Positions 793-63,985 of a DNA stretch of 64,000 nt are shown here, in pieces. A program made the position numbers and the translations under genes. Numbering within the stretch: the first letter of the stretch is position 1; the number at the start of each line of letters is the position of its first letter. This DNA comes from Symbiodinium sp. CCMP2592. Lineage: Eukaryota; Sar; Dinophyceae; Suessiales; Symbiodiniaceae. The stretch spans positions 120,060 to 184,059 of the forward strand of contig CAJNDT010005924.1 in the NCBI GenBank assembly GCA_905221615.1. The letters are read 5' to 3'. Under the pieces are notes generated by a model. The model had not been told where the DNA came from. It did no database searches and saw nothing but the letters and a program-made list of their open reading frames with translations.

Positions 793-926
793 GTAATGTA
801 GAGGCCTTGACAATTGGAATAGGGTTTGGCGGCTCCTTATTATTATAGGGTTTTGGCGGTTCCTTATTGTAAATATAGTATAATATACCCCCAAACCCTA
901 CTCTAATTATCAAGGCCCCTACATTA
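793..926. repeat. PE-H palindromic element
   Basis: The ends TAATGTAG and CTACATTA are inverted repeats, with further inverted matches inside (AATAGGGTTT / AAACCCTA). One half carries an extra copy of the CCTTATTATAGGGTTTTGGCGG core. On the plus strand the ends could act as GT and AG splice sites (TAAT|GTAG, CATTAG|). Confidence 0.75.
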
Positions 927-1159
927 GTGCTCAACCCTGTCGGTTTCGTGCCTCGCCGTTGCTTTGGCAGGCTCGAGGCATCGCCCCGCGAGCGCTTCTC
1001 TGGCGAGCTCCTGCTCTTAAAGGTGCTCTAAGATGTACCTTAACCCTGAACATCCTAACTACCTTGTTGAGGACTTACATAAGGAAATCATAATGAGTAA
1101 CCTCTGGGCTAAGGTAAGGATTATTCGGAAGCCGAAGCCCCAACAAGAAGGTACAAAGC

Positions 1160-1280
1160 CTCAACCCCGACCCTCGAAGCATACACCCCTAAAGGCCTAA
1201 ACTGGACTTAGGAACTAGGATTCTTAAAGGGCTCTCTAAAAGGGATCTATAGGGTTCCTTAAAGGGATCTAGGGGGTTTA
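1160..1280. repeat. dispersed AAGGGATCTATAGGGTTCC minisatellite (PE-M)
   Basis: Degenerate copies of a roughly 21-bp unit, GGGATCTATAGGGTTCCTTAAA. The same unit recurs in patches all over the window, usually next to PE-A palindromes. Confidence 0.6.
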
Positions 1281-1292
1281 GGGTTTAGGGTT

Positions 1293-1412
1293 TACTTAGG
1301 GGATCATGGGACTTACTGGGTTAAATTTAGGGTAACTCTACTTATAACCTACTTATAACCCCAATTAAGGTACTTATAACCTTACCTACTAAGTCCCATG
1401 ATCCTCCAAGTA
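1293..1412. repeat. PE-A palindromic element
   Basis: Inverted ends of the form ACTTRGRGGATCATGGGACTTA and TAAGTCCCATGATCCTCCAAGTA. The body consists of TTATAAGTA-type repeats in both orientations. This is the commonest family in the window. Confidence 0.85.
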
Positions 1413-1620
1413 CACCCCTAGAGCCCTAAACCCTTACACCCTAAAGCCCCAAACCCCTGAACCCTAAACCCTAAATCCACTCATAGAACCCTGACAGATC
1501 CCTTTAAAGGAACCCCTATGGATCCCTTTAACGGAACTCTCCCCTAAACCCTAAGCCGTTGGATGTTGTCAGCTTGAAGATGCCACAGGGTAGTGGGGTT
1601 CTCGTCTCGAAACCCTGGGT

Positions 1621-1685
1621 GTTGTTGGGTTTAGGATTTAGTTTAGGGTTTAGGGTTAGGGTTTAGGGTTTACGGTTTAGGGTTG
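1621..1685 (+). repeat. interstitial TTTAGGG repeats
   Basis: Short degenerate array of the plant/dinoflagellate telomere unit, GGGTTTAGGGTTAGGGTTTAGG. Confidence 0.85.
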
Positions 1686-1889
1686 TTTTTTGTTGTCACG
1701 GGCAGTGTGGACGAAGTGCCAGCAGAGGTTTGGGGGGGGAGAGGGGGGGGGGGGAGCCATGGTTTGCGATCGAGGGGGTCAGAAACGGTTTGAGGTGTAG
1801 GGTTTAGGAGCTAGTTTCCAACAGAGCTGGAAACTTCGACCTTGGGTGGTCTTGGGTAGTTTCACGGTGTGAACTCGGGGGTTTGGGGC

Positions 1890-1993
1890 TTGGGGCATTG
1901 CTGTTGGCATGCTTATTCTGAAGTTCATACCACCATACTGGCCTTGCAGAACTGAACAGGGTAGGACTGCATTAGATTCGATGAAAGCCACCC
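1890..1993 (-). CDS. candidate exon, unknown protein
   Basis: After a CAG|GG acceptor at 1993 an open frame reads GVAFIESNAVLPC... then QGQYGGMNFRISMPTAMPQ. Residue composition is protein-like and the frame is free of the surrounding simple repeats. The donor end is not certain. No family recognised; no neighbouring exon could be joined. Confidence 0.35.
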
Positions 1994-2025
1994 CTGCCTT
2001 AAACCTCGGACCTAGGCACTTTCAG

Positions 2026-2071
2026 GCCGCACACTGTTGGAACCTGGTGAAGAAAAGCCTTCCGTGAACAG
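2026..2071 (+). CDS. candidate 46-nt exon, unknown protein
   Basis: A short open segment (GRTLLEPGEEKPSVN) is bounded by TTCAG|G and CAG|GTATCT, i.e. good acceptor and donor sites. A second plus-strand segment after CAG at 2119 (NIERPLLAKAMAASGAPSL..., ending in TAG near 2210) may be the next exon, but the phase of the join is unresolved. Confidence 0.35.
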
Positions 2072-2391
2072 GTATCTCTTCGAGGTTCCGAATAGCTTCT
2101 GACTTTGGACCCAGAACATCGAAAGGCCTCTGCTTGCAAAAGCAATGGCTGCATCCGGCGCTCCAAGCCTTAGCTCTGGAGTCCTTGTTCTTCATGTTCC
2201 CCAGCTTGTGGCATAGATGTCAAGGGTGGGGTTTTAGGATGGATGTTGATGTTGAAGGGATGGCTTCCTTGCGCATATCTACATCCATGGACCGACTCGT
2301 GCAAAATGCGCATTGATGTGAGTACTGTTAGATGCGTTGCTTGGCGACTGTTGGTATTAGGAGCCGGCTTGAGCACCATTATTGTTACTTT

Positions 2392-2394
2392 TAC

Positions 2395-2469
<75 letters not shown>

Positions 2470-2617
2470 TGGTAGTAGTAGTAGTAGTAGCAGTAGTAGT
2501 AGTAGTAGTAGTAGTAGTTGTAGTAGTAATAGTAGTAGTGGTAGTAGTAGTAGTAGTAGTAGTAGTCGTAGTCGTACTCGTAGTCGTAGTCGTAGTCGTA
2601 CTCGTAGTCGTAATCGT

Positions 2618-2649
<32 letters not shown>

Positions 2650-2717: not shown

Positions 2718-2781
<64 letters not shown>

Positions 2782-2858: not shown

Positions 2859-2896
<38 letters not shown>

Positions 2897-3258: not shown

Positions 3259-3966
3259 CTAGTTGCTCCTTGCTGTTTGCTTCATATGTTCATATCTGGT
3301 TGCGGGCCTCGGAGATTGAGGTTGATAACTTAGGGCATTTGGGCCTCCGGGGGTTTCACGGATTAAAGGTTCCGGTCTTGGCAAAAGGCCGGCCGTTTCT
3401 AGTGATTCCAGTGCAGACCTTGCAGCTGCAACTCCCACTTCTTCTGCTGCTCCTCCTGCTAATCCTCCGAATCTGCTGCTGACCTTAAATAACAATAGGA
3501 TCCCAAGTGTGATTTGACGTAGCTTCCTTAAGTACGGCACTGCTCCTACTCCAACTCCTGGTCTTACTCCTGCCATCAAGACGACGAGGGAGCAGAGGAC
3601 GAGGATGAGGATGAACTTGAGCATGTGACGATGAGCATAAGAGGGGTGTCTTGTGCGGAAGGTGATTTGCATGTACCACAATGACGACCATTGTTGGATG
3701 AGAACCATGATGATGACAATGCTGGCGGATGCCGATGCTGTTGCTGCAGCGCGAATCTTACCAGCTGTTCTCAGGGCTTGAGTGCCTGGTTCTTAGTAGG
3801 GAATGGGGCAGTGGGCTATGGGGACTATAATTGGGGATTACATAGGGACTACTATAGGGATCCTTGCCCCCCCATTCCCAGCGAAGCACCAGGCAGGTTA
3901 GCCATCAAGCCTGTAATCCTCAACCCAAAAAGACACGTGGACCCGCAATTGCCACACGAGATGCCT
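3259..3966 (-). CDS. two-exon membrane protein, C-terminal part
   Basis: Exon 1 runs from about 3966 (acceptor AAG|G) to 3890 and reads ISCGNCGSTC...GLMANLP. Exon 2 runs from 3785 to a TAG stop at 3259. Exon 2 contains three hydrophobic stretches (around SIVIIMVLIQQWSSLWYM, MLKFILILVLCSLVVLMAGV and ITLGILLLF), then an Ala/Glu-rich and Pro-rich tail ending YEHMKQTARSN. The join CCT G|GC ACT keeps frame, and the intron removed is exactly a PE-I palindrome with GT and AG ends. The product is probably a membrane protein; no family recognised. The N-terminus lies upstream and was not found. Confidence 0.6.
3786..3889 (-). repeat. PE-I palindromic element acting as a GT-AG intron
   Basis: The palindrome spans about 3783-3895 (TGCCTGGTTCTTAGTAGGG ... 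CGAAGCACCAGGCA). Read on the minus strand, the hairpin begins CCTG|GTGCTTCG and ends ACCAG|GC. Removing 104 nt joins two coding frames without a shift. Confidence 0.75.
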
Positions 3967-4272: not shown

Positions 4273-4385
4273 TACCCAGAGACTCCAATATCCCTTAATT
4301 AAGGAATATTCCTTAAATCATATTAGGGATCCAATTAAATATTGAGGTATATTACTTAATTAAGGGATATTGGAGTCTCTGGGTA
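4273..4385. repeat. PE-E palindromic element
   Basis: Ends TACCCAGAGACTCCAATATC and its inverse GATATTGGAGTCTCTGGGTA. The interior has TTAATTAAGG and its inverse around a GGATCC centre. Confidence 0.9.
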
Positions 4386-10201: not shown

Positions 10202-11286
10202 CGTAAACATCGTCTGAGCATCGGAATCCAGTACGCTGAAGATCGTCTCGATCTCTTCACGCCTCTTTGGTGCAGGGCGCAAGCTCAACACTCCAAGGTG
10301 GAGTGAGAAGGCAACAACACCCCAACAACAAAATTGCAGTACAGGTTTCTATACTGAACTTAGAACCCTAGCAAAAATTAGAAAAATACAATTTTAGCTG
10401 TTTCTCGGGAATTATAATAACCAAAAATTAACAGCTATTTCTAGGTACCCCTAAGGTTTCAGCCCTACGGCTTGGCCAGCTGCTACACCCTAAATCCGTT
10501 CAGGGTGCTCCACGATCGAGACCTGTGCAGCTTCTGCGTTGTCAACAAGGCTTTCGAGCTACGGTTTAGGGTTTAGGGTTTAGTCTTCGTGAAGTGGTCT
10601 CAGATGATCTCAGTTCACGGTAGGGGGCGATGGTGTCAGAGCGGACAAGCTTTCAGGTCTGAATGCCTCAAACCGAAACTCCTGAACTCTGAGTTTTCAT
10701 TACTCATAAGTAACCCTAATCCTAAATCTTCCGGCCATGAGGAACCCTGTCTAGGGCTTAGGTTCAGTGTTTAAGGGAATCGCGACTATGATGGTGATTA
10801 TGCTGCCAAAGCAATATCGTCTTGAAACCCTGTAAGGACTTTCGTGTTTCAAGGTTTAGGTTGGGACTTGAGGCTGAAACCGTGCTTCAAGCCTAAGATG
10901 CAAAGCCCAAATCCTACTTGTGCTCCGAATAAGGTCTCCCTACAAGGATGTCAAACAAAAGCGAAAACCAACAACACGCCTGTTGGGGGGGGTGCTTTTC
11001 AACCGGTCTAATAAACAACTCGCTTGACAAAACACCCAATCTCCGTCTTTGTGCCTGATGTCCATGGACTCCATGAGCCTCTGAAAGCCATCCATGCTGT
11101 CCTTAAGGTTTAGGGCTTGGGGTTTAGGGTTCCGGGTTTACTTCCCGGGATTGCACGTCAGGCTTGAAACATGGTGGGGTTGCTTTCTGAGGGGTTTGGC
11201 CGAGTGACGAATCCGTTGAGGATCTCCTCTAAAGACATCAGACCATTTCCATCATCGTCCAGACCAGCACAAAGCTTTGCCAGCTC
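10202..11286 (-). CDS. EF-hand calcium-binding protein, partial exons
   Basis: Three minus-strand exons are clear. (1) 11286-11158, acceptor AATCAG|GAG, reads ELAKLCAGLDDDGNGLMSLEE; the loop DDDGNGLMSLEE has D1, D3, N5, G6 and E12 of a canonical EF-hand. A TGA follows at 11158, so either this exon ends earlier or this is one end of the gene. (2) 11101-11036, acceptor TTAAG|G, reads DSMDGFQRLMESMDIRHKDG. (3) 10264-10202 reads EEIETIFSVLDSDAQTMFT, a second EF-hand start, and ends at a canonical GTATGT donor. A segment near 11.34-11.43 kb (SYEHLKRTFSEANRSS) may be an earlier exon. EF-hand pairs of this kind occur in calmodulin-like proteins and at the cytoplasmic ends of protist ion channels; the window does not decide between these. 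Confidence 0.6.
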
Positions 11287-11583
11287 CTGATTTGGAGGAC
11301 GACAAAAGGTGGCAACACAAGTTTTTCAGAAGATTCGCATCCACAAGTCTGAAGTTCCGGTCTCGCAGTGGGAAGAGCGGTTGGCTTCAGAGAACGTCCG
11401 CTTCAGATGTTCATACGAGATGCAGGAACGAGGATTTAGGTCCAGGGTTTACAGTTCAAGCATTCGTGTCTAGGGTATCCCATCATCTACACTCTTCGGA
11501 GCCATTCGGGACGCCTGACCTATGCTGTCCAAGGCCACTGTACTGTGAAAGCTGAGAGGACGGTTTCAGATTTGGCTTGAATA

Positions 11584-11710
11584 GGGCCCCAAAAAAGCAC
11601 ATAAGTACAAATTAGGGTAGGGATATCCCACATAAACCCGCTTATAATGAAGCCCAATAAGGCAGGGATATCCCCATAAAATGCTGATGCTTATGTGCCC
11701 TTTGGGTCCC
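11584..11710. repeat. unassigned palindrome with TA flanks
   Basis: GGGCCCCAAAAAAGCACATAAG pairs with CTTATGTGCCCTTTGGGTCCC; TA stands directly outside both ends. Confidence 0.65.
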
Positions 11711-16686: not shown

Positions 16687-19600
16687 TCAAGTTGGCTACC
16701 ATGAAGTACCGATGTCCTGAGAAAGCATGGGGATGTGGCCCGGACAAATCAAGAGATAACGTTCCTCGCGCAACATCCTCAGCTGTGAGTCGCCTGCTCT
16801 TCCGCTTATGTCCAGCAGACTCCGAGCACTTTGGACAGTGCCTCTCATACAAGCCCTTTGAACACTTCGACTGGAGCAACTGCACTGCCCTCTGTCGCGC
16901 TGCCTCATCGAAGCTTGACGCTAAAGATTTCTCTTCCAAGGCACAGGCTATCCATGGATCTACAGGCTCGGACGCAGGAGTCAGCAACGTAACTCCACAC
17001 ACCTTACACCTTCCCGAACTCCCCGAAGACCTAAAACCCTCGAACCCAATCACAGAGTCCTCATCATCACTTTCATCATCATCAGAAGGAGTCGCATCGT
17101 GCGATGTGGTAGCGATGCTTCTACTGGGGCTTTGCTTGGCTTGGGATGTGATTTGTTGTAACTGCTGCGGCGGCAGGTTGAACCCCAAGTCGCACAAGCA
17201 CTGATGTGTGTCAATGTCCCCTTTGTCCAAGCATCTCGGAGTGTAACAGGTCACAATGCCTCTTACTCCCCTATGCTTGTCCGCTCCATGCCACTGCCGA
17301 GCGTTGAAGGTGTGAGCTTGACGGCTCACCTCCAAAAGATTTCCAACCTTGATCTCATCTCCGACGATCCTTCGCTTCACCATGCCATGACTGTCTTCTA
17401 TCCACAATCGTCCTCCAGTGAATTTGGTCAGTCCAATCACTCCACTTTTGGAGCTGACCTCATTTGTCAGGTCACGATGTGGCGTCAGAGTTGCGTCGAT
17501 GGCAATCTGAAAAGTTGCATAGGTGAGGCCTGGAAGCTCTTGTCGAATAAATGCATTTACCAGTTTGCACAAGTTTGGTCTTTGTCTCGTCAAGTTCGTG
17601 ATTCCAACTATCCCACCGTGACAGTAGTAACCGAAGATCCACATTTTAGCTCTTCTCGAGGACATAGGCAGCGATGCATTCCGAACAACCTCCCACAGCT
17701 CTTCATACGTGATGGAACCCTTCGCTAGCACCTCGCGCGCCAGTGTCTCGCTCTTGAGAACCTCATCTGTGAATTCCACTCCTGCACACATCGTTTCCTC
17801 ATTCCAGGTGTCTTGCATCAGCTGCTCCAATGTGCAAGTGTCACACTCAACCCAGCCTTCATCATCACCCCCAGCTTTCGCCAGCAAAGCTGACGAAGTT
17901 TGAGCCTTGTGAAATCTGGATAGCATGATCCTAATCGGCCTGAAGTCCTGCCAAGAAAGAAATGGTAAGCCATTCTGTATAAGGCATTCAATTGTTTGAT
18001 GTCTACCATGCTGATCCAAATATGTCACTGTTGCACCGCTCTGATTCCAAGAAAACGCTCCCCCTGCATCAACCAATCTGCGGACACTGAGCAGCCAGTC
18101 CCTGGACGATGGGCTAGCCTGTATACACAGTTCGCCATCCCTAGTTTTCACAGCCGGAACATGATCACCTGATGCCGTCACAACCGTTGTGCGCTTACCT
18201 CCGCTCTCTTTGATGTCGCTCGTCCAAGGCCTGATCGTTTCATTTGCTCCAGAATCAACCAGAACTGAAGGCATCGTAACCTGTGGCACTGCTGCTGTAC
18301 TGCCTGTCGGTTGATCTATACACTCTAGTCGTGCAGCAATGTTTGTTTTCTTAGCACCAACCAAACTCGGGATATCATCACAATCCTCCAATGCAATACA
18401 ACGCATCGCCGTGGGCACGTCTCCTCCTGAAGATATGGCACTAGACCTCGGACTACCTTGCTCATCATCCGGTTCACCTCCACTGTCATGCGATGGGAAT
18501 TCCGCATGCACCTCAAAAACCTCTGCTGTTGCTTGCGCCACTTGGAAAGCCTGTCTATCTGAAGACCTGATGTCAAAAGCTGCAGCTTTCGCCAGAGGAG
18601 TTATAGGATAACCCATGCGTGGCAAGCCAACTGAAGCTGTGTCGGAATGTGAGTGTGCGCCTTGTGCACCTTGATGGGAAGATGAAGAAGCAGCCTGACT
18701 CATCCCTGACTCCGGCCACGGATTCACTCGAGGCCTCTGCTGATGTCTCACTATTGCAATATGACGCTCTCTCCCAGTCTCTTGTTCAATCAGCCAGATA
18801 ACAAAGACTGGTCTTGCAATATCATCCTCAAACATTATCTGGACCACATCACATCGCAACATGTCTACACCCTCTACTACAGGAATCACTCCCCTCTCAT
18901 CTTCATCAAGAGGGTCATGCAAGATGGTCCACCAGATGGGCCAGTCAATCGCATTCGGATTCGTGACCTGGCGGAAAGCCCGATGGGCCTGGGCCTGGAC
19001 GTGTCCGGATCTGCTCCAAACAACGTACTCCTCGAAACTGAGATCTAAAGTCCACAACGGTTCAGGTTGACGTTGTAGATTTAAAATCTCATCTGAACCA
19101 TCTGATTCTGACTCCTCACTAGAAAACTCACCACGCTCAACCTCTGACCAGTCTGGAGTTTGACCATCGGCGCGCATGGGAATCCCTGAAACGCTCAAGT
19201 TATCAATGTCACTGTCGCTGGTATCTCCCTCTGCCCTTCTTGCCATAGAAGCCCGTGCTCCAGTTGAACAAGAAACTGCTGGAGTGTACGCTGCACCAAC
19301 TAAAGCTGGAACATCATCATCATCTGCTTTCGCTGCTGCTGCTGTTGATGATGCTGCTGCCTTAGCTGCTGCCTTCGCTGCTGCTTTAGCTGCTGCCTTT
19401 GCAGCTGCTGCCGTTTTTTTCTCGGCCTTGGCTTTCACCTTGGCCTCCGCCACGGCATTGGCATCAGCCTTGGGAGCTGGCGGGACCTTTGGCTCAGGCT
19501 TGGTAACCTGACCACCCTTTCCAGGCTTTCCCCCATCTTTTCCATCCTTGCCCTTTGCACCCTTTCCCTTCTGGTCTCCACCACTCGATTTCTCATGTCG

Positions 19601-21802: not shown

Positions 21803-22008
21803 CCCTTTTCATCAACCCCGAACCCTCAACACCCAAGTACACTTCTCGATTTCTTTCGCTGTCATCTTGAGCCACGCACGGTGGCCATGCTAATCTTCTG
21901 GTATCGTTCCTGCCAAAAGCAAGGTGTCATCCTTGCGCAGGGGTTATGCAGACGCTCTGCTGCACAATCTTCAACTGATCTCGCACAGCTACTACAGATG
22001 CAAACACA
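21639..22008 (-). repeat. 5' LTR
   Basis: 370 bp, same sequence as the 3' LTR as far as I can see. The gag start codon at 21,802 lies inside it, about 207 nt from the outer end. Confidence 0.95.
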
Positions 22009-26526: not shown

Positions 26527-26728
26527 CTAGTACTAGTACTACTACTACCACTACCACTACTACAACTATTATTACTACTACTACTGCTACTACTACCACT
26601 ACTACAAAATACTACTACTACTACTACTGCTACTACTACTACTACTGCTACTACTACTAGTACTACTACTACTACTACTACTACTACTACCACTACTACT
26701 ACCACTACTACTGCTACTGCTACTACTG

Positions 26729-30228: not shown

Positions 30229-32050
30229 TCAGCTTCTGAGTCTTTGACCTCGACCGCAGAGCCTTCGTCTCAGGCTAGACTTAAAGAACAGCACTGCCAG
30301 CAACAGCACCAGTGCCAACAAAGCACTTGAAGTCCATATGCTGTTCGCACAAAGCGAAGCATCCGGGGAGGCCGCAGCCTCAGGTCGAGGTGGTGTAGTG
30401 AAAGGAGCGGCGCCATAAGCCAGTCGGCTGGCGGTGGTTTGCAGCAGCACCACCAGTCCCACACACAAAAGAATGCCCACATCCACCATGAAATTTCTCA
30501 GGCAAGATTTCTGTTTTGCGGCAAAGAAGTCTGACAATATGTAGATCAGATCCACGGCAACAATGGCCCACACCCCACAGGTTAAGCACATTCCAATGCC
30601 AAAAGACAGCACACAGGAGGAAGGAGCACCACTTTTCCATAACGCACAGGTGATATCCACCCATCCTCCCAAGTACGGGCAGATCGTCAACAAGTGATAG
30701 AACCAAGGCACCTCAATCACGCGGAATCTCTCAACCAACTCCTCGCAAAGCTTTCCCCGCACGAAGCTTTCGAAGTCCTCTTCGCTGCCATACCACTTGC
30801 GAATTGCGCCATACACAAATCTCCGATCAAAGTCGTTCTTGCAATCTACCATTGCCAGGTCAAAGTTTTCCAGTTGCCAAATCGCCACATGCTTCTCCCT
30901 CATGAAGGAACGAACGACTTGGATGAGGGGAAGAATCAGACCAAAGCATACAAGAGCTTGAATGCCAGCCAAGCCCCTTACAGTTGGAAATTGCAATGTT
31001 ACGAGATAGGTCCCCTGAATAGCCGCAATGCCGAAAAACGACTTGAGGATGAGGTTCTCCACGAAGATCGGCTGAAATGCGATCCTCCCCGATGGGTTCG
31101 CTGTCCGATAAGCAGCTAATTCAAAAACGCCTGGGCTCTTGTTAAAGGGTTTATCTTTAAGATACCACAATGCGGAAACCATACTATTTACTATAGATGC
31201 CCTACTTGTATTATGGTAACTTAGCTTGAACCCCTTAACAAGGACCCAGACACACCAAAGCCTTGAGAGATACGGCGGACTCCAAAGGATTCGCAGCTCC
31301 TCAGTCACCGATAGCCAGCCGCCAATGCCATAGATCCCTCGTTGCTTGAGTTGCATGTTCGTCTGGTGAATGCAGACAAGGTCAAGAAAGACGTTGACAG
31401 AATTCCTTGGCTGACTTCTGAACCCCTCTTAACAGCTAAACTTTTGGCTTCCTTATTATAGTTCATGTGGACGCCCAAGAAGCTAAGTCCTAAGAGCCAA
31501 CCAGAATAAGGCCAAGGTTCTTTCTTGGAAGATATGGAGAGAGAAGGAGCATGGAAGCTCCGCAGGTTGGGATCAATAGCAGTGCCCAGGGGCCGAGAGC
31601 GCAAACCTCGCCATAGCCCCTGAACTGCGCGACGTAGATCATTGGCATGGGAAGAGCATCAATGGCATAGAGTAGCAGAGCCATGAAGACACCGAGAAAG
31701 CAGCCAAGCAGTGCGTAGTGCCAGTTGAAAGCCAACAGCAAGGACCAAAACTTCAGTCGCCCTGGCGTGTGCCACGTGTGGGACAAGAACATGTCGTATC
31801 CGCTTCCTGGTTTTCCCAGTGACCACAATGCTTCCAGCTCGTTCTCCGCCATCTTGTGTGGTTGGAGCCGCCAAATCCAGCCAGCCCGTTGAAAGGAAGA
31901 CCCTAATGAGACGGATCGAAGGATTTCCTCGTCCACCACCAGTAGCTGGGCTTCCGCCGCCACTGCCGTCCGAGCGCCCGATAGACCTACCGGCGAGGCA
32001 GAACCACTGTCGGGGGATGAACCCTCCGATGAAAACTCCTCGTCAACCAC
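30229..32050 (-). CDS. TIR-like multi-pass membrane protein
   Basis: Exon at about 32,050-31,502, then a 91-nt GT-AG intron (PE-L), then 31,410 to a stop at 30,229, with a possible further intron at 31,251-31,129. Motifs in order: NELEAL, SGYDMFLSHTW (TIR-like first box), two TM segments, then VFLDLVCIHQTN, RGIYGIGGWL, LWSPPYLSRLWCV and FELAAYR (the last two resemble the TIR SxWCxxEL box), followed by at least four TM segments and a basic C-terminus. Splicing CTG|GTTGGC...TCAG|CCA keeps frame. I have seen this SHTW...LSRLWCVFEL arrangement in dinoflagellate proteins of unknown function (recollection, not a search). No in-frame ATG precedes SHTW except one at NELEAL, so an upstream exon is likely. 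Confidence 0.7.
31129..31251 (-). repeat. PE-R palindrome inserted in the TIR-like gene
   Basis: CTGGGTCCTTGTTAAGGGG and its inverse CCTTTAACAAGAGCCCAG bound a 119-bp hairpin. It separates WCV from FELAAYR and adds 41 in-frame codons if not removed. Removing 123 nt restores the motif, but the ends would be GT...GC or the like, not GT...AG. Confidence 0.7.
31411..31501 (-). repeat. PE-L element acting as a GT-AG intron
   Basis: The minus strand reads CTG|GTTGGCTCTTAGGACTT ... AAGTCAG|CC. A homologous 85-bp copy with the same ends lies outside any gene at 59,626-59,710. Confidence 0.75.
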
Positions 32051-32099
32051 GGCGGCACTCCTTTGCTTGTACAGCTTGCTAAGGGAACTAGAGGGTAAT

Positions 32100-32458
32100 T
32101 GGTCTGTGGGGTGGTATAACGATTCTGATAGCCCACCACAATAGTGAAAGCCTTCTTACTCTGCCAACAAGACTCAGTGCCTTGCCGAGGATTTCAGAGC
32201 GAGCAACTGCCGGGTCAACGCATGCGTCGTCATGACAGCAGCTGCTAGAGGAGAGGCCCATAGCGCGCCGGAATGCATGTAACTTGCTGATTATTTTGTG
32301 GGCAATGTGGCCGGTGCATGTCATGTGTTCTACTTCGGCTGGGGGGAGGTTCAGAAGCTTCGCCGATCACCCTTCAGCTTGCTAAAGCCTTGCCCTTCAC
32401 AGCATTCCCTGCCTTTCCGAAAAGCGGTTCTGAGCCTTTTCACCAAAACGTTGAAGAC
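32100..32458. other. upstream of the TIR-like gene, no defined feature
   Basis: Open minus-strand frames (e.g. HIAHKIISKLHAFRRAMG) may contain a first exon, but no join was found. Confidence 0.35.
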
Positions 32459-33172: not shown

Positions 33173-33236
33173 TCCCCCGTGCCCATAGCTCCGAGACCTA
33201 CACTGAACATCTCATCCCGAAGCCCTAAACCTTGGG

Positions 33237-33349
33237 TACCCAGAGACTCCAATGTCCCTGAATTAAGGAACATACCTTAAATTATAGTAGGATCTCTAAT
33301 ATGATTTAAGGAATCTTCCTTAAATAAGGGATATTGGAGTCTCTGGGTA
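33237..33349. repeat. PE-E palindromic element
   Basis: TACCCAGAGACTCCAATGTCC and GGATATTGGAGTCTCTGGGTA. Confidence 0.9.
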
Positions 33350-33448
33350 CTGCCCCCATACAGTAACAGTCTATAATAGGGCTACTATTAAGAGCCTAAT
33401 TTATCTATATTCCAAAGATTATCCAACCGTTACTGAGTGAGGGCAGTA
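33348..33448. repeat. PE-S palindrome sharing a TA with PE-E
   Basis: TACTGCCCCCATACAGTAAC and GTTACTGAGTGAGGGCAGTA. Its first TA is the last TA of the PE-E copy. Confidence 0.7.
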
Positions 33449-33822: not shown

Positions 33823-36258
33823 CCGAATTCCATGCTGCGGCACGGGGTGTAGAAGCTCCACCGCGATAATGGCCCAGACGAGGATAGCCTTGCTAGTAGC
33901 CAGAGACTCCAATGTCCCTTAATTAAGGAATATACCTTAAATTATAGTAGGATCCCTAATATGAGTTAAGGAATATTCCAGGGATATTGGAGTCTCTGGG
34001 TAGCTCTTGCACTTCGGTGGGATTTTGAAACCCTAACTTTCCCTATACACTTTGCGTCGATGTCTGAAAAATTTCGGGTATCGTGGCGTCGACGCTAGCT
34101 CCTCCTCCCTCCCTTCATCCCCCTCACAGAAGCACCCAGAATGCGTGTTCAGCCATAAGTGAACCCCGAGACGGAGGATGCCTCAGTCTGGGCGTTTATG
34201 GCTCTGGCCTGTTGTCCTATATGGGGGTTTCCGAAAATCGGGGACCGTAATATAGCACCCTAAACAGTAGGATCCTTATTGTAAGGACCCCAAACTGAGG
34301 TACCCCGAATTTTCGGAAACTCCAATATGATGGGGCTCTAAATGGCTCGGGCTGAAGAATCGGTGGCTTAATCTCCAAAGTCAACTCGAGCTCAGGAGCT
34401 TACATAACTTGTCCTGGGCAAATGACCAGGAAGCACAAACAGCTGCCGATACCCTAAAGCGTAAACCCTGAAGCTGTAGCCGTGTAGCGGTCTTTCCAAC
34501 CTGAATTAGTTCATGTTGAAGATTTCAGCATCGGACCCTTCAGCCCAAGTCTAGGGGCCTTAGTACCATGCTTTGGTTAACAAACGGGGTACCATGGCCA
34601 AGTATTCCGATCTCTATATTTAATCTAGGCTTTGCTAAACCTACGGCTGCAGCCTAACTTTCGCACGATTTGTGAAGTTAACGAGCAGGAACGTTTTCAC
34701 TGCGAGAACCAAGAATAAAAGTCTTTCTGCAAGCCTGGCGGCCGCTCGCAAGATGCAGCAGGAGATATTCAACTCTGTGTTGTTTGTGGAAACCCTTTGA
34801 AATTCACACCCTAAACCCTAAACCCTACACTTCTCTTTACACCCAAAAAAGATGTCCCTCAACTTCATTCTTGCCCTCCTAAACCCCGACTCGAATGCGA
34901 TACAACCTGTGGGCCTACCATAGAAGTCATACACTGTGATCACAACCCCCCCAGCCGAAAAAGCCTGGAACAGTGGCAACAAGAGTGACATCAAACTGGT
35001 GAGTAAGACTTAGTAACTAGTAATACTGTGCTGAGGTCTCCTTCTTAATTCTGGATATACTATAATGATGTAATCAAGCGACTAAACCTGCTGTATGGGC
35101 TTGGGAAAGACCAAACCGGCCGCAGTGCTGAAAAGCACGACAAGGGGTGGCAGGTCTTGAACTGAGGGAACCAGAGGCCTAGGGATCCTGCTGCTAAGCG
35201 TTTATATCTGGGCACCTCCCCTGCTGCATACTAATTATTTAAAGGAACATGAATCTGCAATGCTGAACGCCATTCGCAAGCCCTATACCTGGATCCTAAA
35301 AAACCTCCCTTTCTAGGGCTCCCTATTATGATTTCCTGAGTCCTTGAAAAGGTAGGTTCTTCAGGGTCCAGGTATCCCTTACAGTAAACCCAAAATCCTG
35401 ATCCCCGGAACCCTAACACTAAACTCGCAACCCGACACCAGCACCGAACCTGAAACTCGATGCCCCCCAAGCCCCAAAGCCTGAACACTGAACCCCAACC
35501 CCCAGGAAACACCAACACCAAAACTCGAAGCACACCTAAACACAAACCATAAGGTTGGGATGTCCCAGAATCCCCACGACTTTGAAATTCAAGAAGATGG
35601 GATATCCCACCCGCAAGCTTATGTTTGGGTGCTTCTTTGGCTCCTGAACCTTGGGCTATCAAGTTTCAGACCCACTCCTTGAACTAAGTTCCTGAGAGCA
35701 AGGCCGACATTAAGATGACGGAGCCGAAGATAATGGCCTTTGCTCTAAGTTTGCTGAGGGTTGGCGCAGGCTTTAGGGTTTAGGATTACATATAAATAGT
35801 AGGGCAGCGGGTATGTGAAGCTAGAAGCCTCGTGGATGACGCGCAGAAAGGATTGAATATTGCTTGTACCTAGATCCGATAATGCATTGCCTTTTCATGG
35901 CTTATGACCAAATCCTACCCTGAAAAGGAAGGTACGACATTCTAGGGGGCTGTCTTGGAACATTGCGAAGCATCCGCAGTATCAGTACGACGAAGAAACG
36001 GAGACGGTGTAAATCTCTGCTCTCGTATGCTTGAGCACCCCCAAACCCTGAACCATAAACCCAAACTAACACCGTTTGGCGGGGTTTGGGTCAGCCTTGG
36101 CTGCCAAACTGCCCTGCAGCAAGGCCATGCATCTAAGGCTTCGAGCAAAACTCAGGCCAAGAGGTTTAGGAGGCTGCGAGGCTGCAACATTTAGGGGTCT
36201 AGGGTTTAGGGGTTAGCGACTGGGGTTTCGGGTTTTTGAAATGTATATATATATATAT

Positions 36259-43232: not shown

Positions 43233-43868
43233 GTATACGTACTTTGGACTGTTTGGGTTAAGACGACAGATGCCGCATGCTAACTGGCTTACGGTTTGGG
43301 GATTAGGGGGTCTAGGACTTTACTCGGCTCCACATGCTTCGTCTGTAACCCACAACATCTGAAGCCTAAACCTTCAGCTCAAGCCCGATTCCCAGCCGAA
43401 AGGAACAACCCCTTCGGTGGTACGAAGGCTCTGTAAACAGCGCAAATGCCCTTTCTAACCCTAATCTGCTACTGTAATCTTCCAACTACTGTTTGAAGCC
43501 GACCACACAAAACCCGAACAGCCCTACTGTTGTTTGAACCCTAGACTCCATGCACCTAAGTCCCCACGGACTCTGAAGCCCAGCATCCAAAACCACCGTA
43601 AAATCTGAAACCCTCACCCTGGAACCCCTGACCCTATAAAACCCTAAACCCTGAAACCCTCTCCAGTCCGAAGCGCGCTGTAGATTCCCAGCAGAGCCAG
43701 GTTCATCTGCCAGAGCCATATCACGAGAGTGCTGCGGACCTTGTAAAGGGAACTCCAGAAAGTTGGAATATGGTTTCATGGTAGGGTACCCTATAATTTA
43801 CCTTAAAGGGGTTACGATAATGATATTCCAATTTTCTGGCTTCTACTGTATGGCATCGGAGATACATA
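33823..43868 (-). CDS. voltage-gated cation channel, partial, many small exons
   Basis: Exons found, N to C: 43,868-43,847 (22 nt); 43,752-43,668 (SLYKVRSTLVIWLWQMNLAL, S1-like); about 42,859-42,791 (RWSLTCLSYLLSALVFSIGA, S2-like); about 41,148-41,071 (LYFSNVWNMIDLLTVILGWG, S3-like); 39,353-39,286 (LRSLLRMCRVVRLART, S4, arginines every third residue); 35,753-35,692 (LRAKAIIFGSVILMSALLS, S5-like); 34,042-34,005 (KLGFQNPTEVQ); 33,892-33,823 (KAILVWAIIAVELLHPV). Where both sides are known, joins keep frame, with AG acceptors and GT, GC or GA donors. The likely role is voltage-dependent cation flux across a membrane. The pore and C-terminus lie beyond 33.8 kb and were not found. Grouping as one gene is inferred from order, strand and segment identity. 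Confidence 0.55.
33893..34004 (-). repeat. PE-E element acting as a GC-AG intron
   Basis: The minus strand reads CAAGA|GCTACCCAGAGACTCC ... TCTCTGGCTACTAG|C. Removal joins FQNPTEVQ to DKAILVWAII in frame. Confidence 0.7.
34224..34324. repeat. PE-F element with ATATG duplication
   Basis: GGGGTTTCCGAAAAT ... ATTTTCGGAAACTCCA, with ATATG at 34,219-34,223 and 34,325-34,329. Confidence 0.8.
34729..34801 (+). CDS. candidate terminal exon, unknown protein
   Basis: The frame SLAAARKMQQEIFNSVLFVE... ends at TGA. A plus-strand segment near 34,496-34,590 (PELVHVEDFSIGPFSPSLG) is similar in quality. No family recognised. Confidence 0.3.
34803..35280. other. no gene recognised
   Basis: A few CCCTAAA units at 34,808-34,830, otherwise mixed sequence. 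Confidence 0.4.
35285..35375. repeat. PE-T palindrome with CCCT flanks
   Basis: ATACCTGGATCCT pairs with AGGGTCCAGGTAT. CCCT stands directly outside each end and may be a 4-bp duplication. Confidence 0.65.
36241..36512. repeat. two AT dinucleotide repeats
   Basis: (AT)n at 36,241-36,302 and 36,428-36,512, separated by about 120 bp of mixed sequence. Confidence 0.9.
36639..36938. repeat. composite PE-F element with nested palindrome
   Basis: GAGAGTTTCCGAAAAT starts a PE-F. A different hairpin (about 36,678-36,770, AGTTGCTTAGT / CTCAGCTACT) interrupts it. The right end is duplicated with PE-M units between the two TTCGGAAACTCCC-type ends, as in the copy at 51.5-51.9 kb. Confidence 0.7.
36942..37027. 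repeat. PE-G palindromic element
   Basis: TGGGTGGTTGTCAAAATTATGG and its inverse, 3 bp from the composite PE-F. Confidence 0.9.
37216..37350 (-). CDS. candidate exon, unknown protein
   Basis: After ATGTAG|GG the frame reads GWEIMIEGHYFAVFSNPGD ... AENCVVLSWSDSLAISARLLLL. It lies between the S4-like and S5-like exons of the channel gene on the same strand, but I cannot show that it belongs to it. Confidence 0.4.
37672..37862. repeat. PE-P palindrome followed by PE-V palindrome
   Basis: GGGGGAGGGGGGGCAGGGGG with CCCCCTACACCC...CTACCCCCCCC; then TGATCAGAAGCTTTAACAG with GTTAACACCTTCTTCTGAT (37,780-37,862). Confidence 0.6.
38405..38494. repeat. PE-J palindromic element
   Basis: ACCAGAAAGTTGGAACAT and ATGTTCCAATTTTCTGG. 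Confidence 0.8.
38508..38602. repeat. PE-C palindromic element
   Basis: TAAGGGTCCATGTGCCCAAATAG and CTATTTGGGTACATGGACCCTTA. Confidence 0.9.
38582..38800. repeat. 111-bp tandem duplication of a PE-C arm plus PE-M units
   Basis: TTGGGTACATGGACCCTTATATCC with following PE-M units at 38,582 recurs at 38,693 with a few changes. A third PE-C-like arm follows at 38,788. Confidence 0.75.
39505..39720. repeat. TACATG/TGTATA-rich simple sequence
   Basis: Irregular CATGTA, TGTGTA and TATATA repeats. Confidence 0.8.
39960..40500. other. no assigned gene; one protein-like segment
   Basis: A minus-strand frame near 39,990-40,108 (HIKTVKSPLVSLADRYGKCE) looks protein-like, but no acceptor-donor pair was found. 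The right part is CCCTAAA variants. Confidence 0.35.
40514..40622. repeat. PE-E palindromic element
   Basis: TACGCAGAGACTCCAATATCC and TATATTGGTCTGGGTA. Confidence 0.85.
40723..40918. repeat. PE-C element with nested PE-N
   Basis: AGGGTCCATGGACCCAAACAG ... CTATTTGGGCAAGTGGACACTTA. PE-N (40,756-40,830) splits the left arm from the centre. Confidence 0.75.
41172..41495. repeat. telomere-derived tandem array, about 75-bp unit
   Basis: Units of AACCCTAAACTCTAAACCCC...AAGCACCTAAACCCAGAACC...AACCAACCCTAAGCCCC repeat about four times with gaps. Confidence 0.75.
41500..42170. other. no gene recognised
   Basis: A short TTTAGGG patch at 41,585-41,630, then mixed sequence without a convincing frame or palindrome. 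Confidence 0.4.
42239..42309. repeat. CTAT/TATA simple repeat
   Basis: CTATCTATCTAT followed by (TA)n. Confidence 0.85.
43183..43232. repeat. AT dinucleotide repeat
   Basis: (AT)n with GT interruptions. Confidence 0.9.
43753..43846 (-). repeat. PE-J element acting as a GT-AG intron
   Basis: The minus strand reads ATACA|GTAGAAGCCAGAAAATTGG ... CCAACTTTCTGGAG|TTCCC. It joins a 22-nt exon to the S1-like exon of the channel gene in frame. Confidence 0.65.
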
Positions 43869-52257: not shown

Positions 52258-52680
52258 TGGATACGGTGGATTGCTCAAGACTGGGGGGATCCCTTCCGGG
52301 GCACGTGTTTTACTAGTTATAAGTACTTAAACCATCTATCCTCGAGATGATACCTGGATCTGTTTTCCCTGAATTTCTCAGGGAGCCTTAGACTCACGAC
52401 GACCCGTCGATGATTCCTGCTGTATGGGTGAGCTCCAAGGTTGCAAGGTGTAGGGTGTCAGGGGGTTTCAGGGTTCAGAGCTCTTGTTCCTCATAGAGTA
52501 AGTCTCATAGTAACCCTAAGCCCTAGATCCTAACCCTTAAGGGAGCCCTTTATGGGAAGGAGTGGAGCAGCTAATCCAGTCAAGCCAAGGGGCCGATGCC
52601 CAAAACTCACTCCCTCTCACGGAGGCCGCCATGATGTCGGACGTCACTTTGGAGACTGGGTTCTTCTTAAGGCGGAAGTT

Positions 52681-52746
52681 AATTTAAGTTACCATAGTAG
52701 GTATCTGTAGGAAATGGTATTATGGTTTCCTTATTATGGCAACTTA
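52681..52746. repeat. PE-R palindromic element
   Basis: TAATTTAAGTTACCATAGTAGG and CCTTATTATGGCAACTTA. Confidence 0.65.
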
Positions 52747-57766: not shown

Positions 57767-58138
57767 TCATGTTTTGGAGATGGGCTTGACGAGCCTACAG
57801 GCCCAGCTGTCTGGGACATAGTAGGGAATGGGGGAATGGGTTATTGAGACTTGTATAGGGGACATCAAGGCACTATCATAGGGAACCATTCCCACATTCC
57901 CTACAAAGAACCAGGAAGCCAGTCTTGCACCAGGTAAGGTTGATGTAGAGTGAGACTGCAAGGCGTGCGTCACCGTCCTCCAGCTTGGGATTTGAACTTT
58001 GGTCAGGGAATGTGATCTTCCATCGTGACATCTGACCTTACAGGCGCCCGGAACACGGGCCTGCAGTACTTCGGTGCGATGCAGTCGAAGTCGCAATCTT
58101 GAGTTGGCTGAAGCAAGCCAGGAGTGTGCGACTTCGAT
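57767..58138 (-). CDS. exon between two palindromes plus short terminal exon
   Basis: Exon 58,138-57,912 begins right at the CTCCCAG end of a PE-F palindrome and reads IEVAHSWLASANSRLRLRLH RTEVLQARVPGACKVRCHDG...TLPGARLAS. It ends TCCTG|GTTCTT, the start of a PE-I palindrome. Exon 57,806-57,767 reads WACRLVKPISKT and ends at TGA. The 105-nt intron is a multiple of 3, so unspliced RNA would also be open. No family recognised. Confidence 0.55.
   Translation of the reverse strand: MEVAHSWLASANSRLRLRLHRTEVLQARVPGACKVRCHDGRSHSLTKVQIPSWRTVTHALQSHSTSTLPGARLASWFFVGNVGMVPYDSALMSPIQVSITHSPIPYYVPDSWACRLVKPISKT
57807..57911 (-). repeat. PE-I palindromic element acting as a GT-AG intron
   Basis: CTG|GTTCTTTGTAGGGAATG ... 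CTATGTCCCAGACAG|C. Two AG acceptors, 4 nt apart, are possible at the far end. Confidence 0.65.
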
Positions 58139-59607: not shown

Positions 59608-59756
59608 CCTATAGTCTCCATTGTACTGACATATCCCTACAAGTTAAACTTTTAGCCTCCTTATTATAGTTCTCATTCAATCCTGCAAAGTTAAAGTCCT
59701 AAGAGCCAACCAGAAGACGCCAAGAACAAAAGGAACTACAATTGAGACGATGGGTA
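59606..59756. repeat. PE-K element with nested PE-L
   Basis: TACCTATAGTCTCCATTGTA ... AAAAGGAACTACAATTGAG...GGGTA, interrupted by an 85-bp PE-L copy (59,626-59,710). The PE-L copy shares CTGAC, TTTTAGCCTCCTTATTATAG and AAGTCCTAAGAGCCAAC with the intron at 31.4 kb. Confidence 0.8.
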
Positions 59757-59857
59757 CGGTTGATGCTCTAAATCCTGCATTACCCATATTAAGGAATGTA
59801 CCATAATTCCCATAGTTTAGGGCCCTTAAGGTAATGCAGGGTTTATATCATCAACCG
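59757..59857. repeat. PE-D element with TA duplication
   Basis: CGGTTGATGCTCTAAATCC and TTATATCATCAACCG, TA on both sides; the left TA is the last TA of PE-K. Confidence 0.9.
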
Positions 59858-59863
59858 TAGTAT

Positions 59864-60321: not shown

Positions 60322-60402
60322 CCTAAACCCTAAACCCTAAACCCTAAACCCTAAACCCTAAACCCTAAACCCTAAACCCTAAACCCTAAACCCTAAACCC
60401 TA
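60322..60402 (-). repeat. perfect (CCCTAAA) array, about 11 units
   Basis: Uninterrupted telomere-type repeat, C-rich strand on plus. Confidence 0.95.
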
Positions 60403-60502
60403 CAAAGCCCAAACTGGATCAGATAAACCCCGAGTCTTCTGCACCGAAAGCTGTAGAGTACAGGCCCGCTTGAATATGCGAACCGTGAACCCGAAACACG
60501 AG

Positions 60503-60575
60503 GGTTTAGGGGTTTAGGGTTTAGGGTTTAGGGTTTAGGGTTTAGGGGTTTAGGGTTTAGGGTTTAGGGTTTAGG
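60503..60575 (+). repeat. TTTAGGG array, about 10 units
   Basis: Near-perfect TTTAGGG units, inverted relative to the array 100 bp to the left. Confidence 0.95.
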
Positions 60576-61560: not shown

Positions 61561-62195
61561 GGGGTTGAAAGTTGTACGGCTTGTTAGGTCCAGGGTTTGG
61601 GATTCTCTTGTCAGGCCTGTGTCATACTTCGGGGTATGAGCCTTCGGGTTGTCTGAGCGTTGGGAGCAGCCGTAGGCGTCTCTGAACTCAAGCCCCAAAG
61701 CAATTCTAGAGTCTATGCGGCCCTATACCCAGACTACGCCCCCTCCAAATCCAAAGCAGGCCACCCTGCTGCAAAGCCCACCCAGAGTCCCAGAACCCGA
61801 GACTGTGGTTTAGGGTCGGGAATGCATCGCTCTAAACCCTAAACCCTAAACCCCAAATGTCGGAGAACATGCAGTTTCTGCGAGCCTCACGGGACCCTAG
61901 AGACCTAAACCGGTCCCAGACTCGATGCAGGGCCGTAGTCCAGCAGCCGGCGGGCCGTAATCTGACTCTAATGCTTTGCTTTGGGAGTTCAGGGCTTTCG
62001 GCTTTGATTGTCTTCAAAACGTAGGGTGGGTTGGGAGTTTATGAGGGATCTGTGAGGAATCTTGTCATACCAAGCTGCTAGTCATTTAGCCCCTCTATTC
62101 CGTGTTTGCGGGGCTTTGAATTTGGGTTAATCTCCATACCAGCCTCAGAAACCTGATAAAGAGACTATGTTTAATCGTCTCTTGGGCAACTCTAG

Positions 62196-62287
62196 GTCTT
62201 TTCTGCTCGCGCGCCCGAGGATTCGGGGATCTAAGGGCGGAGACGTCTCGCTGCAGCTACACTCCAAGGGCTTCATGATCATTCTTG
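62196..62287 (+). CDS. candidate exon, unknown protein
   Basis: CTAG|G acceptor and CTTG|GTAATT donor bound the frame SFLLARPRIRGSKGGDVSLQ LHSKGFMIIL. The next exon was not found. No family recognised. Confidence 0.45.
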
Positions 62288-62337
62288 GTAATTCTTTGTG
62301 GTGGGGACAAGCAGGATGGGGATGAAGAGGGGGGGGG

Positions 62338-62430
62338 GCTGGTTGTCCAAATTAGGGTCCCTTTTTGGGTCCCTATTATCATACGGCACCTATTTTTTAG
62401 GATACCCAAAATGGGACCATAATTTTTGGC
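62338..62430. repeat. PE-G palindromic element (diverged)
   Basis: GGGGCTGGTTGTCCAAATTAGG and CCATAATTTTTGGCTGGG, with CATACGGCACCTA core. Confidence 0.7.
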
Positions 62431-62502
62431 TGGGCGTGTTTATGAGAGAATAGCAACAAGAAGGAATCCTAAAGAGGTAGCGGCAGTAGCCATTCAGGCT
62501 TC

Positions 62503-62729
62503 TACTTGGAGGATCATGGGACTTAGTAAGGGTTCCTTAAAAGGGCTCTTTAAGGGGATCTATAGGGTTCCTTAAAGGGATCTACAGGGTTTACGGTTGA
62601 GGGTCTACTTGGAGGATCATGGGACTTAGTAAGTAAGGTTATAAGTACCTTAATTGGGGTTATAAGTAGTTATAAGTAGAGTTACCCTAATTATAGCCCT
62701 AGTTATTAAGTCCCATGATCCTTTAAGTA
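62503..62729. repeat. PE-A half, PE-M units, then full PE-A
   Basis: A lone left arm TACTTGGAGGATCATGGGAC (62,503), PE-M units, then a full PE-A at 62,606-62,729. PE-M units follow to 62,800. Confidence 0.85.
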
Positions 62730-62865
62730 AACCCCTAAACCCTAAACCCCATAGATCCCTTTAAGGAACCCTATAGATCCCTTTCAAAGAGCCCTAGTTA
62801 CTAAGGCCTGAGGGACCTCAGGTCTAAGGTCTGGGGTCTTAGACCCTAAACCCAGGGTCGTTTAA

Positions 62866-63068
62866 TACAGGGGCCTCAATAATTACCCATACTACGGTTG
62901 ATGATATATATATATATATATCCTGCATTACCTTAAGGACCCTAAACTATGGTGTATATTCCTTATTATGGGTAATGCAGGACGTATAGCATCAACTGTA
63001 TTTTGTGGGGTTCCGTATTGTATTTATAGTATAACAATATGCCCCCAAACCCTATTCTAATTATCAAT
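62866..63068. repeat. PE-H element with nested PE-D
   Basis: TACAGGGGCCTCAATAATTA ... CCAAACCCTATTCTAATTATCAA is PE-H. A PE-D copy (62,895-62,998) with TA on both sides interrupts it. Confidence 0.8.
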
Positions 63069-63162
63069 TACCCTAAGGCCCCAAAGTAGTTCCTTTTTGG
63101 GGTTCGTATATAGAATCCTACAAGGTAATCCCAAAAAGGAACTACTATGGAGCCTCTGGGTA
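63069..63162. repeat. PE-K palindromic element
   Basis: TACCCTAAGGCCCCAAAGTAG and CTACTATGGAGCCTCTGGGTA. Confidence 0.9.
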
Positions 63163-63225
63163 AGGCCCTATACTAGGCTTCGAGTTCTAGGCTTTCGGGT
63201 TCCAGGGTTTGGGGCTTAGGGTTTT

Positions 63226-63418
63226 GTACCCAGAGAGCCCAGTACCTAGGGTTCCTTTAAAGGGATCTATAAGGGATCTATAAGGTTTAGGGTATAGGGT
63301 TTAGGGTTTAGGGGACTCCAATACCCCCTAATTAAGGAATGTGGCTTAAGTTATATAGGGCTTCATATTATGATTTACGCTATATTCCTTAATTAAGGGG
63401 TATTGCGCTCTCTGGGTA
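63226..63418. repeat. PE-E element split by PE-M and TTTAGGG units
   Basis: TACCCAGAGAGCCC is separated from GGACTCCAATACCCCCTAATT by about 60 bp of PE-M and TTTAGGG. The right arm ends TTGCGCTCTCTGGGTA. Confidence 0.8.
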
Positions 63419-63555
63419 GGGTTCAGGGTTTACGTTGTAGGCTTCAGGGTTGGGGCTCAGGGAGGGCTTCAACCCTACACCCTGAACCCTAATTCAACCC
63501 TAAAGCCTGAACGCTAAACCCTGAACCCTAAGCCCTAAACCCAGGATATGCTACC

Positions 63556-63665
63556 CTAAGGGTCCATGTACCTAAATAGTATATACATTGGCCTTAAAGT
63601 ACTCGCTATATGGGTACATTGGGCCCAATTTAAAGTATATACTATTTGGGTACATGGACCCTTAG
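63556..63665. repeat. PE-C palindromic element
   Basis: CTAAGGGTCCATGTACC and GGTACATGGACCCTTAG. GCTACC stands just outside both ends. Confidence 0.9.
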
Positions 63666-63764
63666 GGCTACCGTAAGGTTCAAGGTTTGGGCTGAAGGAG
63701 GGAGGGGGAGTTCCTGGTCGAGTTTCGGCCCCAGACCTGACATTTCGATACCTACGCCACACTG

Positions 63765-63985
63765 TACTTGGAGGACCATAGGACTTATAGGGTTATAATT
63801 AGGGTAACTCTACTTATAACTACTTATAACCCCAATTAAGGTACTTATAACCTTACTTACTAAGTCCCATGATCCTCCAAGTAGACCCTCAACCGTAAAC
63901 CCTGTAGATCCCTTTAAGGAACCCTATAGATCCCCTTAAAGAGCCCTTTTAAGGAACCCTTACTAAGTCCCATGATCCTCCAAGC
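63765..63985. repeat. PE-A element, PE-M units and PE-A right half
   Basis: Full PE-A at 63,765-63,883, then PE-M units, then the isolated end TACTAAGTCCCATGATCCTCC. Same order as at 6.5-6.7 kb. Confidence 0.85.

What the first reader, a model, noticed from the sequence alone, without database searches (positions are those of the whole stretch)
793..63985. Many families of short palindromes that appear to double as introns (introner system)
Seen: at least twenty families of 75-165 bp imperfect palindromes, about 80 copies in 64 kb, nested and recombined. At 3.8, 31.4, 33.9, 43.8, 54.8 and 57.9 kb, copies lie exactly between coding segments with GT or GC at the start and AG at the end, and their removal keeps frame. 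Known: introner elements derived from DNA transposons have been reported in dinoflagellates and other algae. Inferred: here many unrelated hairpin families share one route, with the terminal inverted repeat giving both splice sites (e.g. CTGGT / ACCAG).
Basis: partly seen in the sequence, partly recalled or inferred. Interest (0 to 1): 0.93.

Follow-up and report, generated by a model that had tools for sequence, protein, structure and literature searches.

The report
Jumping hairpin DNA that becomes introns
In this dinoflagellate-like genome, small hairpin-shaped jumping DNAs insert into genes and appear to behave as removable introns, because the four letters copied at each landing site supply one splice signal and the element's own end supplies the other; such elements are already known from related algae, but here one short stretch of a gene family seems to have been hit again and again.

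Summary
The palindromes are real: 44 strong hairpins in the window, 0 in each of three shuffles; the families recur elsewhere in the 1.1-Gb genome. The intron claim holds in kind, not in detail. Homologues support both excisions.

I inferred 30 introns in two unrelated gene families; G[T/C/A]...AG ends were required by the scan. Not required: in the 29 counted, every downstream exon starts with G, 25 introns have C at position 5, and intron positions 2-4 repeat the downstream exon (56 of 87; 26.7 expected; 0 of 20,000 shuffles). One element family makes GT-, GC- and GA-AG introns. So the 5' splice site comes from a 4-bp target duplication and the 3' site from the element's end; the inverted repeat does not give both. 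This matches introners published for Symbiodinium microadriaticum.

Least expected: in 19 genes of one family introns sit at 8 positions within 18 nt, suggesting recurrent insertion (sliding is not excluded). No transcript data were available.

The parts
31521..32155 (-). exon (open region; true 5' end not determined) of a gene with 59 homologues, nearest named one Effrenium voratum; no Pfam match
31406..31520 (-). introner intron 1, 115 nt, GA-AG: target copy GAAC, element CTTGGC...GCCAAG, second copy GAAT (3 of 4).
31254..31405 (-). exon between the two introner introns
31131..31253 (-). introner intron 2 (family A), 123 nt, GT-AG, stop-free: GTGT + CTGGGTCC...GAGCCCAG, then GCGT (3 of 4).
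   Evidence: removing its 41 residues improves the match to 58 of 59 homologues; 8 of 9 aligned homologues lack them, P0002 has them; hairpin z -5.5
30229..31130 (-). last exon with stop codon
29619..29717 (-). dispersed copy of family C; 88% over 104 nt to an intron of paralogue L070; flanks CTTA/TTTA
10349..10455 (-). dispersed copy of family B (introns in L043, L055, L011); flanks AAAC/AAAC
52656..52746 (.). partial dispersed copy of family A (69-76% to family A introns)
59642..59724 (-). partial dispersed copy of the intron-1 family; its 3' end runs into another hairpin
11583..11662 (-). partial copy similar (79% over 80 nt) to an intron of paralogue L045
54767..54878 (+).
57806..57919 (.).
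3783..3895 (.). F1 element, no coding support on its short side; next ORF without homologues
33897..34002 (.).
43753..43846 (.).
4273..4385 (.). F4 element with TA-like flanks
33236..33350 (.). F4 element
63554..63667 (.). F3 element (CCCTAAGGGTCCATGTACC)
59755..59859 (.). F5 element (TACGGTTGATG); others at 9599, 27922, 33577

Best explanation
Several of the hairpin families are introners: non-autonomous, MITE-like DNA elements with 5'-CT...AG-3' ends and a 4-bp target duplication. Insertion into an exon whose 4 bp start G[T/C/A] yields G[T/C/A]NN + CT...AG + G[T/C/A]NN. The spliceosome uses the first copy of the target as donor and the element's terminal AG as acceptor, and so restores the exon exactly. 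Copies landing on other 4-mers stay outside coding sequence. Shown: element families, 4-bp repeats, dispersed copies, donor identity following the target, and homologues without the inserts. Inferred: splicing itself, DNA transposition, and purging of copies that cannot splice. Many of the other palindromes are MITEs with other ends and were not seen as introns.
For: A splice scan that required G[TCA]..AG and a fixed spliced length, and did not use repeats, found 17 introns in 23 inputs at one site (3 without intron, 3 unresolved) and 5 in 21 inputs at another (15 without, 1 unresolved). The 29 introns counted (those 22 plus 7 placed otherwise): GT 12, GA 9, GC 8; downstream exon starts with G in 29 of 29; C at position 5 in 25; positions 2-4 repeated 56 of 87 against 26.7 (0 of 20,000); positions 5-8 36 of 116 against 30.2 (1,427 of 20,000), so the repeat is 4 bp. 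Family A makes GT (window), GA (L071, L011a) and, by eye, GC (L011d) introns. Of 12 dispersed copies looked at, 4 show a clear duplication, none starting with G in the orientation of the intron copies: CTAT/CTAT, AAAC/AAAC, CTTA/TTTA, TGAT/TAAT. Second gene family: removing three introner introns from the leucine-rich-repeat gene in L011 gives 119 aa without a gap, 88% identical to P0062, an ORF on a 1,360-base contig.
Against: No RNA reads; that P0062 is transcript-derived is only guessed from its contig length. The G[TCA] and AG ends were a condition of the scan, so they are no evidence. Over 23 introns, 12-bp terminal inverted repeats are not significant (112 against 103.5, p 0.11), and 12 of 17 introns at the hot spot have folding z above -1; only a few are clear hairpins. 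2 of 29 introns share just 1 of 4 letters with the exon and 7 share 2 of 4. 8 of 12 dispersed copies show no clear duplication or are incomplete; AAAC reads GTTT on the other strand. Of three CCT-type gene introns read by eye, 1 has C at position 5, and each repeats only 2 of 4 letters. P0002, 91% identical, carries intron 2 as coding sequence. Seven of the 29 introns (window intron 1, L011 a-d, L078, L079) were placed by eye, by family match or by homologues, so they are less unbiased than the other 22.
Confidence: 0.87

Rival explanations
1. One reading: the terminal inverted repeat itself carries both GT/GC and AG, so a copy is a complete intron wherever it lands.
For: At 31.4 kb the GT...AG inside the element also keeps frame (91 of 115 nt removed, 24 left). 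F1 ends read CTGGT/ACCAG.
Against: 6-10 extra residues against aligned homologues and lower scores in 51 of 59; donors vary GT/GA/GC within family A; five of six junctions have no coding support.
Confidence: 0.05
2. Ordinary MITEs that merely lie in old introns or between genes; the intron borders are ancestral and the hairpins are passengers.
For: Most window copies have no coding support; L051's intron holds an F7 element and L011 intron a holds a nested hairpin. Many paralogues share a broad intron location.
Against: In families A, B and C the element spans border to border and the duplication abuts both splice sites; intronless paralogues exist for the same site (L054, L075, L077).
Confidence: 0.08
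3. The clustered positions in the paralogues are one ancestral intron that slid, not repeated insertion.
For: Offsets 38 (5 genes), 41 (4) and 46 (3) are shared; paralogues are old and the tree is poorly resolved (3 of 19 inner branches starred).
Against: The direct repeat matches the local exon at the different positions; family B elements, 77% alike, sit at offsets 46 and 50 in paralogues from different parts of the tree; one supported clade (100/99) of six genes has offsets 50, 38, 38, 41, none and none.
Confidence: 0.25

Closest known systems
Introners of Symbiodinium microadriaticum (Gozashti et al. 2022, PMC9860276, Fig. 2B legend; passages seen)
   Same: 4-bp target duplications, terminal inverted repeats, 3' splice site in the element, 5' splice site from the duplication.
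   Different: Sequence kinship not tested. Here one family is seen to give GT, GC and GA donors, and many insertions cluster in 18 nt of a paralogue family.
Introners of dinoflagellates incl. Polarella glacialis (Roy et al. 2023, not held; seen only as summarised in PMC11453091) and of Symbiodiniaceae incl. Effrenium (PMC11114475, passages)
   Same: Many introner families, recent activity, same group of algae.
Introner elements of Amoebophrya (Farhat et al. 2021, PMC7789003, passages)
   Same: Inverted repeats plus 3-5 nt direct repeats at intron borders.
   Different: There they were defined among introns with non-canonical splice sites; here G[TCA]..AG introns were looked for and found.
Introner-like elements of fungi with parallel gains (PMC4457414, passages)
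   Same: Insertions within 15 bp of introns of other species, argued to be parallel gains and not sliding.
   Different: 3 cases in 4 genes there; here 8 positions in 18 nt over 19 genes of one family in one genome.

Membership tests
Introners (introner elements) | Similar introns at non-homologous positions in unrelated genes | tested here: met
   Family A: window intron 2, L071 intron, L011 a and (by eye) d; family B: L043, L055, L011 c
Introners (introner elements) | Similarity spans the intron from border to border | tested here: met
   Families A, B, C
Introners (introner elements) | Spliced from transcripts | not testable with these tools
   No RNA reads; homologue continuity only
Introners (introner elements) | Homologous genes without the insert | tested here: met
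   8 of 9 aligned homologues lack the intron-2 residues, and removing them improves the match to 58 of 59; these are proteins, so an intron spliced out there is not excluded. At DNA level L054, L075, L077 have no intron at the site
S. microadriaticum-type introners | 4-bp target duplication | tested here: met
   positions 2-4 repeated, positions 5-8 not; 4 of 12 dispersed copies with a clear duplication
S. microadriaticum-type introners | 5' splice site from duplication, 3' from element | tested here: met
S. microadriaticum-type introners | Terminal inverted repeats | tested here: inconclusive
   8-10 of 12 letters in window introns 1 and 2, L070, L071; not significant over 23 introns
S. microadriaticum-type introners | Sequence homology to the published families | not tested
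   Those sequences were not on hand
DNA transposon superfamily of these elements | Cognate transposase | not tested
   None searched

The most novel reading that the evidence does not exclude
An 18-nt coding stretch (codons for about D/S/T-R-L-W-C-V) in a large paralogue family is an insertion hot spot where different introner families have landed independently at 8 or more neighbouring G[TCA] positions. Parallel intron gain is then close to the rule, and 'conserved' intron locations in dinoflagellate gene families need not be ancestral. The group's tolerance of GC and GA donors is the imprint of donors drawn from target duplications.
Probability: 0.5. Interest if true: 0.75.

Novelty: new member of a known kind. 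Interest (0 to 1): 0.58.

Why it matters
It shows from sequence alone how a jumping element can become an exon-neutral intron, and that one element family makes GT-, GC- and GA-AG introns according to where it lands. That ties the odd splice donors of dinoflagellates to the way introns are born. The clustered insertions bear on whether shared intron positions mean common ancestry. It also warns that stop-free introners (window intron 2; P0002) can be taken for protein.

Tried and rejected
Rfam scan of the window: no match. Pfam on nine window ORFs: only RVT_2 in a copia-like element; the spliced window protein has no Pfam match. Homologue search for the 3.8-kb ORF: none. A script failed for a missing module and one for a bad motif; both were rewritten. 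An early spliced model of intron 2 used a wrong 3' border and gave 0 of 59 improved; it was replaced. The count of 51 of 59 for intron 1 was the same in both. A first automatic search for 4-bp duplications with CT...AG ends allowed perfect matches only and found 6 of 272 hairpins; a looser one that also asked for 40 open residues on each side found 2, window intron 2 and one at 39859-39949 that was not followed. The splice scan gave no result for L078-L083; L078 and L079 were then placed by eye, L080-L083 and L041 were left out of the counts for lack of one border. In three of the five introns a second placing scored within 8 units of the best. Considered and rejected: TIR-borne splice sites; stop-free intron 2 as a true protein insert (insert 24 of 39 identical to P0002 against 304 of 318 in flanks); terminal repeats as a general mark of all these introns (not significant). 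The genome-wide copy number of family A could not be had: that request did not complete.
Full report
Setting. The window is one 64-kb piece of a contig in a 1,098,105,373-base, 5,383-contig genome. The source is therefore very probably a dinoflagellate of that order (inference). The species was not identified.

Observation. A gapped inverted-repeat scan finds 44 hairpins of score 40 or more and none in three shuffles. In 285.7 kb (the window and 27 loci, fetched for a copy of family F1 and so not random) 261 of 328 hairpins pass a low-complexity filter, in 24 families of two or more and 43 singletons. F1 searched in the whole genome gave 1,031 first-look candidates, of which 40 were scored and 40 matched, the window's own copy included. 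Families differ in how they end. F1 has CTGTCTGG/CCAGACAG with 4-bp duplications outside (0.62 matched against 0.33 expected). F4 has CCAGAG/CTCTGG ends with short, TA-rich flanks. F11 (6 copies) has about 5-bp duplications. F2, F5, F6, F8 and F9 are mostly flanked by TA-like ends.

The six junctions. Joined frames at five of them are, on their shorter side, no longer than at 14-36% of 4,000 random sites. At 3.8 kb the total frame is longer than usual (200 aa, p 0.017), but its ORF has no homologue. At 31.4 kb the frames are long. The exon-neutral solution is 31520-31406 (115 nt, GA-AG) and 31253-31131 (123 nt, GT-AG). The exception, P0002, reads through intron 2. There the insert is 24 of 39 identical and the flanks 304 of 318, as expected if the insert is not coding.

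Borders. Both introns have the form target copy, CT...AG, target copy: GAAC/GAAT and GTGT/GCGT.

Paralogues. A search with P0001 gave 106 matches (93 of 436 candidates scored). Of the 103 rows outside the window gene, 26 end at residues 145-158 and 28 start at 140-154, while 32 run through. I chose the loci for fetching mostly because they broke there, so the set is biased towards intron carriers. A scan that fixed the spliced length, required G[TCA]..AG and scored the peptide against 54 homologues resolved 17 introns in 23 inputs, the window gene included; 3 had none and 3 were unresolved. Offsets were 33, 37 (2), 38 (5), 41 (4), 46 (3), 48 and 50. Two more, L078 (44) and L079 (37), were read by eye: 19 genes, eight positions. 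Five introns in 21 inputs were found in the upstream region, at five different offsets; 15 had none there and 1 was unresolved.

Statistics. Over 29 introns (22 from the scan, plus window intron 1, L011 a-d, L078 and L079) the donors are GT 12, GA 9 and GC 8; G[TCA] and AG ends were a condition of the scan. Not conditioned: all 29 downstream exons begin with G, 25 introns have C at position 5 (binomial 1.4e-12 on interior composition), positions 2-4 repeat the downstream exon in 56 of 87 cases (26.7 expected, 0 of 20,000 shuffles), and positions 5-8 do not (36 of 116, 30.2 expected, 1,427 of 20,000). Terminal inverted repeats over 23 introns are not significant (p 0.11). They are obvious only in a few, which I read as the younger ones.

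Families in introns and outside. Family A: window intron 2 (GT), L071 (GA), L011 a (GA) and, by eye, L011 d (GC), with dispersed copies in L026 and L021 and at 52656 in the window. Family B: L043 (GT), L055 (GT), L011 c (GA), with dispersed copies in L009, L012, L025 and at 10349 in the window. Family C: L070, and 29619 in the window at 88%. Of 12 dispersed copies looked at, four have a clear duplication (CTAT, AAAC, CTTA/TTTA, TGAT/TAAT); the others, L012 and L025 among them, show none or are incomplete. The same element therefore takes its donor from the landing site.

Second gene family. L011 (contig C4679), fetched for an F1 copy, holds a leucine-rich-repeat gene (Pfam LRR_6) with five such introns: a 8251-7977, b 7857-7714, e 7628-7487, c 7367-7265, d 7151-6962 (a-d are in the 29, e is the thirtieth). 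By eye, removing a and b keeps a 30-residue repeat spacing. Removing e, c and d gives 119 residues without a gap, 88% identical to P0062, an ORF on a 1,360-base contig; leaving any of these three in puts stops in every frame. P0062 may be a transcript assembly; this is a guess from its contig length.

Hot spot or sliding. In a tree of 22 proteins, a supported clade of six (100/99) has offsets 50, 38, 38, 41, none and none, and a pair (96/95) has 37 and 33. Family B elements 77% alike sit four bases apart in paralogues from different parts of that tree. This favours repeated insertion. Only 3 of 19 inner branches are well supported and some offsets are shared, so sliding or inheritance is not excluded for those.

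Comparison. Gozashti et al. 2022 (PMC9860276, passages) describe in S. microadriaticum 4-bp duplications, terminal inverted repeats, 3' site in the element and 5' site from the duplication: the same route. Roy et al. 2023 on dinoflagellate introners is not held; I saw it only as summarised in PMC11453091 (passages). Parallel gains of introner-like elements within 15 bp are described in fungi (PMC4457414, passages). The listings of my searches for 'introner' with dinoflagellate, Symbiodinium, terminal inverted repeat, direct repeat, hotspot and intron sliding showed no title or abstract on a hot spot of this density in dinoflagellates, but most subscription papers are outside the library.

Verdict.

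Noticed in passing
window 13867-21808 (-): Large copia-like retrotransposon remnant in two long open frames (939 and 1789 aa); Pfam RVT_2 in the shorter one.
   Followed up: partly
window, e.g. 60322-60575, 32937-33165, 41172-41495: Many short TTTAGGG-like (telomere-type) arrays dispersed through the window, some facing each other as hairpins.
   Followed up: no
window 4273-4385, 33236-33350 and L014, L015, L018, L021, L027: Family F4 seems to have short duplications of free sequence with TA preferred, odd for a TA-specific element.
   Followed up: partly
L051 intron (C1480), L083 (C902), L011 intron a, L025 4846-4944: Hairpins nested in introns or in other hairpins: F7 elements inside paralogue introns, another hairpin inside introner a, family B beside or inside F1.
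   Followed up: partly
P0002: A protein record about 91% identical to the window gene carries introner 2 as coding sequence, apparently an ORF call through a stop-free introner.
   Followed up: yes
window 39859-39949 (+): A further candidate hairpin with GTAC/GTAG flanks and 117 and 51 open residues on its sides.
   Followed up: no
L037 2757-4918: CCT-type chaperonin gene with three GC-AG introns read by eye; one looks like GCAG+CT...AG+GCGC.
   Followed up: partly
window 25416-26527: Long arrays of 73-bp and 84-bp units next to each other.
   Followed up: no
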